A stretch of DNA of 64,000 bases from an uncultured Lachnospiraceae bacterium (lineage in GTDB: Bacteria > Bacillota > Clostridia > Lachnospirales > Lachnospiraceae), in contig CALWRS010000003.1 in assembly GCA_944384025.1 (NCBI GenBank), positions 124,001-188,000 of the forward strand. The letters are read 5' to 3'. The notes beneath the pieces are model-generated. The model was not told where the DNA came from. It searched no databases and worked only from the letters and a program-made list of their open reading frames with translations. The position numbers and the translations under genes are program-made. Positions 48,347 to 58,430 of this stretch are shown in pieces. Position 1 is the stretch's first letter, and every line of letters starts with the position of its first letter.

Positions 48347-51300
48347 ATGAAACGACACCTTGCATTTGCACTGATTGTTTGTTTTCTAGTACAATCAATG
48401 CTCTTCCTTTCCCCTTCGCTAACGCAGAGCGCGCAGGCGGCGGAACTCTCTGCTTATTGCACGGCAAATACGCTGAATGTACGCAGGGGACCGGGAACTT
48501 CTTATGCAATTCTGACTTCCGGCGGAAGTCTGGTACAGCTACATAAAAATGACAAAGTTACCGTTCTTGGCACGAGCGGCGACTGGTATCAGGTACGCCT
48601 TACATTTAAAGGCAATACGGTAACCGGTTATTGTCTAAAAACTTATATAAAAACGTCCGGAAGCGTGACTCCCACGCCTACGCCGCAGACGTCTACTTCG
48701 AGCGCCTACGTTTTGGCAACAGTGACAGCCAACTCCTTAAATGTGCGAAGCGGAGCAAGTACGTCTTATACAAAGCTTACAAACCTGAAAAAGAACACGC
48801 GGATTCAGGTATACGGCAGCAAGAAAAACAGCAGCGGCGAAGTGTGGTACCAAATGAGCGTTACCGTAAAAGGAAAGAAAATCAGCGGCTACATGCTTAG
48901 TACTTACATTAAGCTTTCTAAGCCGCTTTCTTCCATTGTGACGTCTACGCCAAGCGCAACGCCTGCGCCGGGCGGGACGCAGAGTGCAAAGCTTGGATAC
49001 GTTAACGCAAATCAGCTAAATATTCGCTCCGGAGCGGGGACAAGCTATAAAAAGTATGCGACGCTTGGGAGAAATACGAACGTCACGGTTCTAGGCGAAA
49101 AGAAAGATAGCAGTGGCGATTTGTGGTATCAGGTGAAAGTGAAGTACAACGGAAGCGACCTGAACGGCTATATGCTTGCGAAGTACATTGTCATTACAGG
49201 CAATGCGTCGACGGCAACAAACACGCCAACGCCGACGCGGGCGGCAACAAACACGCCAACGCCAACGCCGACGGCAACGAACACGCCAACACCAACACCG
49301 ACGGCAACGAACACGCCAACACCGACGCCGACGGCAACGAACACGCCAACACCGACGGCAACAAATACCCCGACGCCAACAGCTACAAGCACGCCAACAC
49401 CGACAAGCACGCCGACACCGACGTACAGTGTTGCCGCGACGATCAACGCTTCTTCTCTTAACCTTCGAAGCGGTCCGGGAACGGAACATACAAAGCTTGT
49501 GAATCTGAAGCGGAACCATCCGGTAACCGTGACGGGAATTGGCTACGACACGCAGGACGACCTTTGGTACCGCGTGAAAACGACGGTTAACGGTGTTTCT
49601 TACGAAGGATATATGCTCGCAGTTTACGTGGCGCTTTCTGCGCCGCTTCCGGAAGACGGCGGCAGCGCGGAGGAAGAAGGCAATTTGGCGGATGCGCCGT
49701 ATTTGCTCTTTGGCGTGCTAACGGGCGATTCCGTAAATATGCGTACGGGTCCTTCCACTTCTTATACGGTTTTGACGAAGCTTTCTAAGCAGCAGGCGGT
49801 GACCATTTACGGAACGGCGCTAACAGGAAGCACGGTTTGGTACCAAGTTTCCGTAGAAAAAGACGGAAAGACGCTGTATGGCTACGTGACAAGCCAATAC
49901 ATAGGATTAAAGCAGTGCGAATCCTTAAACGTCTGGGGCGAGTCTTTGTCTGCGCAAACTGTTTATAAAACGCCCGCAGGCAGCGCCTTTTTAGCATCGG
50001 ACGGAAAGAGCGCGGCGCTTGCAAAAGGGCAGCAGGTATGCATCCTTGGCGAGAAGCTGGTGAGCAGCATAAAGTGGGTGAAGATCGCCTTTGTGCAGGG
50101 AGACGAAGTTCTTTACGGCTACGTAAAACTTTCCGGAATCGGTTTTATAAAAGAGCCGGAGACGCATCCGTTTGCTCCTTATGAGCCGGATGCGGACTTC
50201 CTTGACGCTATGCGGGCGGAAGGATTTCCGGAGAGCTATTTGCCTTATCTGCTTTCGCTTCACCAAGAGCATCCGAATTGGACGTTTTCGGCGTACCAGA
50301 CCGGCCTAAGCTGGGCGGATGTAATTACAAACGAAGACGTCGTAGGTTACAATCTGATTCCAAATACCCGCGCTCTGCAATGGCTGTCTTTTGCCGCAGG
50401 AGCGTATGCGTGGGATAGGGATGCATTTGTCGTTTACGACGGAAGCTACTGGGTAACTGTATCAAATGCCGGGCTGCAATATTACATGGATCCTCGCAAT
50501 TGGCTGAGCGAGCAGTACGTTTTCATGTTTGAATCGCTTGCCGCAGACGCTTCCAACCAGACGCAGGAAGGCGTGGAGAGCATCCTAAAGGGAACGCCGA
50601 TGTACAAAACGAGTTTTAGCTACGTAGACGAAAACGGCAAGAAACAGAGCATTTTGTATTCGCAGGCGTTTATGAAGGCGGCGGAATACTCCGGCGTAAG
50701 CGCATACCACCTTGCTTCCCGCGTAAAGCAGGAAGTTGTTGTCAGCAGCACGAATTTTAGCCAAAGCGTTTCCGGAACTGTGGAAGGCTTTGAGGGCTTG
50801 TATAACTTTTACAACATTGGCGCATACAACAGTACGGTGAGCATGGGAGCTATTAAAAACGGTCTGAAATTTGCGAAATACGGCGGAACTTCCGCATCGC
50901 TGAATCAGTCGTCGCTCATCCCGTGGAACAACCGTTACCGCGCTCTTGTGGGCGGTGCGTACTACATTGGCTACAGCTACATCCGCCGGGGGCAGGATAC
51001 GATTTACCTGCAGAAGTTTAACGTAACCGACAACAGCACCTACGGCCACCAGTATATGGCAAATGTAGAAGCGCCCAAGTCGGAGGCGTACAAAGTTTAT
51101 CTTGCTTACAGTGCTATGGACGATTACGAAAATATGTCCATTCACTTTAGCATTCCGGTTTACAACGATATGCCGGAAAAAGCAGTTTCAGAGCCTGCTT
51201 TGGTGAAAAATCCGAACAATTACCTAAAGACGTTGACGGTTAAAGATTCGCTTGGCAACACGCTGACGCTTACTCCTTCCTTCCGCTACAATACGCTTAG

Positions 51301-51490: not shown

Positions 51491-51525
51491 AAAGAGGGAG
51501 CAACATCGTATGCTTCCTCTTTTTT
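51491..51525 (+). terminator. rho-independent terminator after the SH3b protein gene
   Basis: A 12-bp stem with one G-T pair (51491-51502 with 51511-51522), an eight-base loop and a T-run. Intron-derived copy 1 begins 2-3 bp after it. Confidence 0.85.
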
Positions 51526-51527
51526 CA

Positions 51528-51714
51528 TGTTCGCCCGCCATGGGCGGGCGAACATGAAAGACTAGCCGCATTTGGGCTAGTCTCCATGAGCAACTACTAC
51601 GCCGAGAGGCGTGTCACTTGTTAAGTTGATTGAACCGCCGCTTGCGGAACCGCATGAGCGGTGGTGTGAGAGGTCGGAAATTCCTCAATTAGAGGAATTT
51701 CCTCCTACTCGATT
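51528..51714 (+). mobile_element. group II intron-derived 3'-end element, copy 1
   Basis: A 187-bp sequence repeated at 58244-58430. It opens with an 11-bp GC-rich hairpin (51529-51553), then AGACTAGCC / GGCTAGTCT, then ACGCC-GAGA-GGCGT with a GNRA tetraloop. It ends with intron domains V and VI. Domain V (51634-51665) has a 9-bp lower stem with the CGC triad, a 2-nt bulge TG and a 4-bp upper stem capped by GAAC. Domain VI (51668-51710) has an 11-bp hairpin and GAG-AGG pairing with CCT-A-CTC, leaving A51707 bulged as the branch point. The 3' end is GAT. There is no reverse transcriptase and no domain I. Class C introns are known to insert beside terminators, which is what is seen here. Confidence 0.7.
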
Positions 51715-58194: not shown

Positions 58195-58200
58195 AAAAGA

Positions 58201-58243
58201 AAATCCAAACCGTTCCAAAGCGGAATACGGTTTGGATTTTTTG
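58201..58243 (+). terminator. rho-independent terminator after the zinc-ribbon gene
   Basis: A 12-bp perfect stem (58201-58212 with 58228-58239), a 15-base loop and a T-run. Intron-derived copy 2 begins at 58244. Confidence 0.85.
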
Positions 58244-58430
58244 TGTTCGCCCGCCCATGGCGGGCGAACATGAAAGACTAGCCGCATTTGGGCTAGTCTC
58301 CATGAGCAACTACTACGCCGAGAGGCGTGTCACTTGTTAAGTTGATTGAACCGCCGCTTGCGGAACCGCATGAGCGGTGGTGTGAGAGGTCGGAAATTCC
58401 TCAATTAGAGGAATTTCCTCCTACTCGATT
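58244..58430 (+). mobile_element. group II intron-derived 3'-end element, copy 2
   Basis: By eye, identical to copy 1 (51528-51714), except that the three-base loop of the first hairpin reads CAT here and ATG in copy 1. Branch-point adenine is A58423, and the intron-like 3' end GAT falls at 58427-58429. The next base, 58430, is the 3' terminal nucleotide of the tRNA-Ala gene on the other strand. Like copy 1, it starts just after a terminator T-run and runs on the + strand. It has no ORF. Confidence 0.7.

What the first reader, a model, noticed from the sequence alone, without database searches (positions are those of the whole stretch)
51528..51714. ORF-less mini group II intron derivative retaining only domains V and VI
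A 187-bp element, present twice in the window, ends in a domain V with the CGC triad and 2-nt bulge, and a domain VI with a single bulged adenine 6 nt before a GAT end. It has no reverse transcriptase, no GUGYG 5' end and no domain I, so it cannot splice by known rules. Two copies with the same borders suggest it moved or was copied as a unit. This would be a non-autonomous, intron-derived mobile element.
Basis: partly seen in the sequence, partly recalled or inferred. Interest (0 to 1): 0.75.

Follow-up and report, generated by a model that had tools for sequence, protein, structure and literature searches.

The report
Shrunken, copied mini group II intron
One bacterial genome carries four near-identical 185-letter remnants of a jumping self-splicing intron that lost almost all of its catalytic body but kept both ends, and they look as if they spread to new places with help from the one complete copy in the same genome.

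Summary
The element is real, and its parent is in the same genome: one full-length group IIC intron (1,852 nt, contig C1) whose reverse transcriptase is intact and 76% identical to E. rectale MarathonRT. Two internally deleted forms share the parent's outer ends: 265 nt (2 copies, plus a 5' piece) and 185 nt (4 copies, two in the window). All 8 copies sit behind terminator-like hairpins, the IIC target. D5 and D6 are intact by a covariance model built from other genomes (96.9 bits, E 2e-24); Rfam itself gives no match. Parent nt 22-1692, where EBS1, D2, D3 and D4a lie, is deleted. The 5' module matches the inverse complement of the C1 5' junction over 29 nt (three copies) or 19 nt (W1), suggesting one founder made by strand switching at C1, later copied. 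A relative (G014) lacks the element at the three sites checked. My capped surveys found no amplified short form elsewhere, but many copies there could not be classified. Best reading: a non-autonomous group IIC derivative mobilised in trans by the parent's RNP. The mobilisation is inferred, not shown.

The parts
51529..51713 (+). mini-intron copy W1 (185 nt, G1 to U185)
   Evidence: borders shared with the full-length parent at C1
51490..51523 (+). intrinsic-terminator-like stem-loop upstream of W1 (target structure of group IIC introns)
   Evidence: fold of 45 nt, -17.8 kcal/mol; no shuffle control made
51525..51528 (+). IBS1 (TCAT), complementary to the parent's EBS1 AUGA at nt 184-187
   Evidence: EBS1 position taken from PMC10190682 section 4
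51529..51553 (+). 5' terminal hairpin: parent's first 21 nt completed into a perfect 11-bp inverted repeat with a 3-nt loop (ATG here, CAT in the other three copies)
51554..51561 (+). junction ATGAAAGA: 8 nt shared by the parent (nt 1693) and the inverse of the C1 copy's 5' exon; its ATGAAA also occurs in the parent's EBS1 loop
51554..51624 (+). remnant of the 3' end of the RT/maturase ORF, with stop codon
51626..51632 (+). proposed 3' strand of the D4 basal helix (UUGAUUG); the complementary CAAUCAA is in the parent only (nt 379-385)
   Evidence: pairing inferred from complementarity, no covariation seen
51634..51665 (+). domain V
51667..51711 (+). domain VI with bulged branch-point A at 51707
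58245..58429 (+). mini-intron copy W2, hairpin loop in the other orientation; 3' end adjoins a tRNA gene on the minus strand
58200..58240 (+). intrinsic-terminator-like stem-loop upstream of W2
   Evidence: fold of 45 nt, -20.8 kcal/mol; no shuffle control made
58342..58429 (+). D4 3' strand, D5 and D6 of W2

Best explanation
It is a short, internally deleted, non-autonomous derivative of a group IIC retro-intron of the E. rectale/MarathonRT type. The founder most likely arose at the C1 copy, when synthesis of a DNA strand that had copied the intron's 3' part switched strands at an 8-nt shared stretch (TCTTTCAT), ran into the intron's 5' end and snapped back, closing a 5' hairpin. The short RNA was then copied to at least four terminators through an RNA intermediate, using the parent's machinery in trans. 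The details I think likeliest are these. The mini supplies its own D5, D6, branch A and ends, like the 3' half of an intron split in D4. The parent's D1 to D4a, with its exon-binding loops and bound maturase, supply target choice and the rest of the active site, and the maturase then makes the cDNA. Shown: parentage, shared borders, identical junction, terminator-like targets, copy numbers, absence from the same places in a relative. Inferred: strand switching, RNA intermediate, assembly in trans.
For: One intact IEP of this family in the genome (457 aa, TIGR04416 422 bits; RVT_1 and GIIM), at C1 only; the other 6 of 7 matches are C-terminal remnants. 324 of 427 residues identical to the PDB 7uim chain. 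C1 matches Rfam group-II-D1D4-3 and D1D4-1. The last 161 positions (with the flanking T) of all four minis equal the parent; W2, C11 and C4 are identical throughout, W1 differs only in the loop. 8 of 8 copies follow a hairpin with a T-rich run. The four bases before the insertion pair with parental EBS1 AUGA: TCAT in 2, TTAT in 1 (one G-U), TTGT in 4 (two G-U), TTTT in 1 (a mismatch). G014 has no match to the element and lacks it at W1, W2 and C11. Inverse match to the C1 5' junction: 29 nt in W2, 19 nt in W1. Only 2 of 1,664 possible right breakpoints lie 0-1 nt before an ATGAAAGA, a motif picked after seeing the junction. CAAUCAA, partner of UUGAUUG, found upstream in 17 of 20 loci with 300 or more IEP residues, 5 of the 17 from one genome. 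The bacterial intron Ll.LtrB split in DIV trans-splices in vivo (PMC3410883, passages).
Against: No transcript, lariat or new insertion has been seen. The short RNA lacks D4a, which the E. rectale paper calls the high-affinity maturase site, and the EBS1 loop, so it is a poor substrate by present knowledge. Only four copies exist, in one draft genome. Gene conversion between copies would leave the same borders. The C15 copy (5' part of the 265-nt form, then sequence found nowhere else in the genome) is unexplained. The 265-nt form joins nt 104 to nt 1692 without microhomology, so the strand-switch account fits the 185-nt form only. I did not locate EBS3 in the parent; nt 231 is not an A as in E. 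rectale.
Confidence: 0.55

Rival explanations
1. SINE-like copying without splicing: the parent's reverse transcriptase recognises the 3' end (D5/D6) of the mini transcript and copies it by target-primed reverse transcription at terminators, with no ribozyme step by the mini.
For: 5'-truncated copies of this intron family exist elsewhere, as in LINE-type copying: L035, L036 (also internally deleted), L029, L048 and L073. The mini keeps its 3' end.
Against: 4 of 4 minis and 2 of 2 complete 265-nt copies have the exact 5' border, which unspliced transcripts would not be expected to give. D4a is absent.
Confidence: 0.15
2. No mobility of the short form: full-length (or 265-nt) introns inserted normally, and later recombination between copies (gene conversion) spread the deletion to sites already occupied.
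For: Parent and minis share 21 nt at the left and 160 nt at the right as possible crossover tracts; conversion would keep borders and targets.
Against: The left tract is very short; no site is seen with a mixed form; four short copies against one full-length copy need repeated conversion in one direction. G014 has no full-length intron at W1, W2 or C11 either, but it is another species, so this weighs little.
Confidence: 0.15
3. Cis-acting mini-ribozyme: the junction ATGAAA, identical to the parent's EBS1 loop, serves as a new exon-binding site next to the 5' hairpin, so that the mini needs only the maturase.
For: ATGAAA lies at the junction of both short classes and is complementary to the 5' exon; RNAfold pairs UUCAU (W1) and UUUAU (C4) of the exon with AUGAA. 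6 of 1,664 breakpoints would lie 0-1 nt before an ATGAAA, the EBS1 copy included.
Against: No J2/3 and no D1 receptors for D5 are left. The same coincidence is explained in the 185-nt form by the 8-nt microhomology with the C1 5' exon. W2 does not fold this way.
Confidence: 0.06
4. Assembly or binning artefact: collapsed repeats produced the short forms.
For: Draft genome in 19 contigs; palindromic hairpin with flipped loop; C15 copy ends near a contig end.
Against: The four copies lie inside contigs of 62 to 265 kb with distinct flanks. Copies of this intron family in other drafts often lie at contig or locus edges instead: 41 of 80 loci had under 300 nt upstream.
Confidence: 0.05

Closest known systems
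Eubacterium rectale group IIC intron with MarathonRT (PDB 7uim; PMC10190682, outline with abstract and the whole of section 4 read)
   Same: Parent's IEP 324 of 427 residues identical; EBS1 at nt 184-187 in both; CGC triad, branch A six nt before the terminal U; DNA stem-loop target
   Different: The E. rectale intron has all six domains; the mini lacks parent nt 22-1692 (rest of D1, D2, D3, D4a, most of the RT gene)
ORF-less Thermosynechococcus elongatus TeI3 introns (PMC2882425, passages read)
   Same: Deletion derivatives with one shared breakpoint, multiplied and mobilised by a related IEP in trans
   Different: Those have the ORF in DIV deleted; the internally deleted TeI3n (DId to DIVa1) is reported as a fragment
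Euglena group III introns (PMC4424553 and PMC2882425, passages read)
   Same: About 90-120-nt introns thought to depend on trans-acting factors
   Different: They keep DI-like and DVI parts and lack DV, the opposite set, and lie in chloroplast genes
Bipartite or tripartite trans-splicing group II introns (PMC3410883, passages read)
   Same: A piece with D4 3' strand, D5 and D6 can work with a separate 5' piece
   Different: Here the short piece has its own 5' end and exons and sits at several sites
Short internally deleted elements (SIDEs) of insect non-LTR retrotransposons (PMC6740152, title and start of abstract in the listing only)
   Same: Short internally deleted form of a retroelement, amplified
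   Different: Derived from an insect CR1 element, not a group II intron

Membership tests
Group II intron (ribozyme, six domains) | D5 with catalytic triad and 2-nt bulge | tested here: met
   CM from 23 sequences of other genomes, 96.9 bits, E 2e-24; both-sided changes in 11 of 28 pairs of the D5/D6 model
Group II intron (ribozyme, six domains) | D6 with bulged branch A near the 3' end AY | tested here: met
   A at 51707, end AU
Group II intron (ribozyme, six domains) | D1 with exon-binding sites, D2, D3 and J2/3 in cis | tested here: not met
   parent nt 22-1692 deleted
Group II intron (ribozyme, six domains) | 5' end GUGYG | tested here: not met
   GUUCG in element and parent alike
Group II intron (ribozyme, six domains) | splicing to a lariat | not testable with these tools
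   no RNA data
Group IIC (bacterial class C) lineage | insertion directly after intrinsic terminators | tested here: met
   8 of 8 copies follow a hairpin and T-rich run (no shuffle control)
Group IIC (bacterial class C) lineage | parent's IEP of class C, without endonuclease domain | tested here: met
   RVT_1 and GIIM only at E <= 0.001; best solved relative is the E. rectale IIC maturase; class judged by that similarity, no class model was run
Non-autonomous mobile element | several copies with the same borders and junction at different sites | tested here: met
   4 copies of the 185-nt form, 2 complete copies of the 265-nt form
Non-autonomous mobile element | sites without the element in relatives | tested here: met
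   3 of 3 sites checked (W1, W2, C11) lack it in G014, C11 also in G004; the other sites were not checked; flanks beyond the terminator diverge, so the empty site is not base-exact
Non-autonomous mobile element | movement driven by the partner observed | not testable with these tools
   experiment needed
Rfam group II D5/D6 (Intron_gpII) | match to the Rfam model | tested here: not met
   no match at gathering or E <= 10; none in the parent's 3' end at E <= 1

The most novel reading that the evidence does not exclude
A bacterial genome in which minimal introns, reduced to 5' end, D5, D6 and 3' end, are spliced and mobilised in trans by the D1-D4 scaffold and maturase of one full-length intron. 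This would be a natural, living counterpart of the step proposed between self-splicing group II introns and small introns served by trans-acting RNAs (spliceosome-like).
Probability: 0.25. Interest if true: 0.92.

Novelty: new variant of a known kind. Interest (0 to 1): 0.64.

Why it matters
The bacterial ORF-less introns I read about (T. elongatus) have the ORF deleted and otherwise resemble whole introns. A multiplied form without D1 beyond nt 21, D2, D3 or the maturase anchor would set the minimum that a group II RNA needs to move, and would make the trans-scaffold idea of spliceosome origin testable in a bacterium whose partner enzyme is a close relative of MarathonRT, for which structures exist. 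It also suggests that D5-based surveys requiring an RT or D1-D4 nearby can miss such elements.

Tried and rejected
Rfam search for Intron_gpII: no match in window or parent; replaced by a model from relatives. Search for the 185-nt-specific junction elsewhere: 0 in genome contigs and 0 in viral contigs, exact 19-mer only; phages none; plasmids 269 records with a match, 1 of them covering at least 80% of the query (a Roseburia plasmid with ltrA under the match); of the 20 listed, 15 list ltrA under the match and 5 list nothing (the other 249 were not seen).

Mini-like intron L213 of an uncultured Lachnospira looked like an independent short form, but its filler looks like an insertion-sequence end and has about 35 matches in that genome: rejected as a parallel. 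L178 and L209 are ordinary ORF-less introns with the ribozyme kept, with the same flanks in two MAGs. G133:C43 and G124:C15 are internal deletions with a 5' end, one seen in each genome and both decayed.

Survey limits. In the family search 72 of 299 genomes matched, own genome included, with at most 2 candidates scored per genome in the rows shown. The R1 search covered 34 of the 40 genomes; in the own-genome R1 search 150 of 739 candidates were scored. I fetched 40 of the regions found and classified the 18 with the most upstream sequence: 6 had no IEP match, 1 (L321) had a parental 5' end, at full-length distance; none had one close to D5. That test used the own parent's first 170 nt, so diverged 5' ends would be missed. 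Of the other 22, all close to contig edges, 12 show the IEP's C-terminal part running to within about 10 nt of the edge, as expected of longer copies; the rest show little or nothing. G124's further copies were not classified beyond that. D4 helix partner not found in L204 and L207; L193 held too little sequence upstream.

The neo-EBS1 idea was considered and ranked low, because the 8-nt microhomology explains the same letters.

Full report
What is there. The window holds two copies of the element, 51528-51714 and 58244-58430, 184 of 187 positions identical. The window's genome (1.92 Mb, 19 contigs, no name given) has four such copies (C3 twice, C11, C4), two longer copies (C8, C9), one 5' piece (C15) and one full-length intron (C1). 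The outer borders are the same in all complete copies. Counting from the first intron G to the final U, the sizes are 185, 265 and 1,852 nt; the outer T on each side belongs to the target site. The family is probably Lachnospiraceae: contigs of a same-genus genome (G006, 19,672 bases) and a same-family genome (G141, 414,993 bases) have the lengths of named Lachnospiraceae records.

The parent. The C1 copy matches Rfam group-II-D1D4-3 (144 bits) and D1D4-1 (48 bits). It encodes a 457-aa protein with RVT_1 and GIIM domains, TIGR04416 at 422 bits, aligned with all 427 residues of the PDB 7uim chain, 324 identical. It is the only full-length IEP of this family in the genome; the other six of seven matches are C-terminal remnants in the short forms. 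In the E. rectale structure paper (PMC10190682, outline and section 4 read) EBS1 is A184 to G187, A188 adds a pair, the branch is A632 of 638 and D4a anchors the maturase. In the C1 parent nt 184-188 read AUGAA, and the bulged A lies six nt before the end. EBS3 was not located; nt 231 is not A.

What the short forms keep. The 185-nt form is the parent's first 21 nt, four added bases (GAAC) that complete a perfect hairpin, and parent nt 1693-1852, from ATGAAAGA in the RT gene's final codons onward: end of the ORF, 3' strand of D4, D5, D6. The 265-nt form is parent nt 1-104 joined to nt 1692-1852 without microhomology. A covariance model from 23 sequences of other genomes (of 94, near-duplicates removed), with both-sided changes in 11 of 28 pairs, scores both window copies at 96.9 bits (E 2e-24) and finds seven D5/D6 units in the genome. 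Rfam's library gives no D5/D6 match.

Targets. All 8 copies follow a hairpin with a T-rich run in RNAfold models (no shuffle control), the known habit of group IIC introns (PMC4424553 passages). The four bases before the insertion are TCAT (W1, C1), TTAT (C4), TTGT (W2, C11, C8, C9) and TTTT (C15); the first three pair fully with parental EBS1 AUGA if G-U is allowed, the last does not.

How the founder arose. In W2 (and its identical mates C11 and C4) a stretch of 29 nt, including the right half of the hairpin and ATGAAAGA, is the exact reverse complement of the C1 copy's 5' junction, 8 nt of exon plus 21 nt of intron; W1 shares 19 nt because its 3-nt loop is turned round. ATGAAAGA occurs once in the parent, at the breakpoint; 2 of 1,664 possible breakpoints would lie that close to it (the motif was chosen after seeing the junction). 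The simplest account is a strand that had copied the intron's 3' part, annealed through TCTTTCAT to the opposite strand at C1, copied the 5' end and snapped back. It predicts loop CAT, seen in three of four copies. This is inference, and it does not account for the 265-nt junction.

How it spread. Three short copies are identical and the fourth differs by a loop flip, so spread was probably recent. In the genus search (22 genomes, own included) the only other match was G006, 83% over 107 nt at contig starts. In the nearest relative by the tRNA/tmRNA segment (G014, 92%) the W1, W2 and C11 terminators are not followed by the element; flanks further down diverge, so these show absence, not a base-exact empty site. 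Copying in trans by the parent is the best account: exact 5' borders in 6 of 6 complete short copies argue for reverse splicing, and the mini's UUGAUUG could pair with CAAUCAA of a parental D1-D4 RNA (found in 17 of 20 loci with 300 or more IEP residues, 5 of the 17 from one genome). Bacterial Ll.LtrB split in DIV trans-splices in vivo (PMC3410883 passages). Gene conversion among copies remains a main rival.

How common. In the family search 72 of 299 genomes, own included, matched the element; every listed match outside the own genome lies in query 29-187, the 3' part. Among 40 genomes searched with the 267-base query (list cut), 34 of them again with the D5/D6 model, and 80 named loci, the copies I could classify were full-length, 5'-truncated, ORF-less or decayed; I saw no second case of an amplified short form with both ends. 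Many copies lie at contig or locus edges and could not be classified.

Known or new. Four of my ten literature searches were aimed at derivatives of this kind; in their listings (titles and starts of abstracts, the last cut at 20 of 29) I saw no report of a multiplied group II derivative lacking D1-D3. The other six showed none either, several cut at 15 or 20 rows. Only the open-licence PMC library was searched. Nearest precedents are the ORF-less T. elongatus introns, group III introns, split introns and insect SIDEs. PMC8919778 (passages) describes a survey that accepted a D5/D6 only with an RT domain or D1-D4 within 1,300 bases, which would probably pass over these copies.

Noticed in passing
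L131, L134 (G014:C34 and C58): Behind the same terminators where this genome has W2 and C11, the relative G014 carries similar-looking GC-rich intergenic sequence at both places, possibly its own dispersed repeat.
   Followed up: no
L018 (G000:C15:49884-50072): A 5' piece of the 265-nt form runs through the deletion junction and stops right after ATGAAAG, then continues into sequence found nowhere else in the genome; the contig ends soon after.
   Followed up: partly
window 51540-51542 and 58256-58258: The three-letter loop of the 5' hairpin is in opposite orientation in W1 versus W2, C11 and C4, a flip-flop as in palindromic ends.
   Followed up: partly
window 49206-49433: Stretch of short tandem repeats (copies spaced 12 to 30 nt, CGCCAACACCGACGGCAACGAA-like), perhaps low-complexity coding sequence.
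   Followed up: no
L252, L259-L271 (G319): About 50-nt insertion-sequence-like end with about 35 matches in an uncultured Lachnospira genome, one copy inside a broken group II intron.
   Followed up: partly
L178, L209: ORF-less group IIC intron with ribozyme kept, with the same flanks in two MAGs, one with a further 5' deletion.
   Followed up: partly
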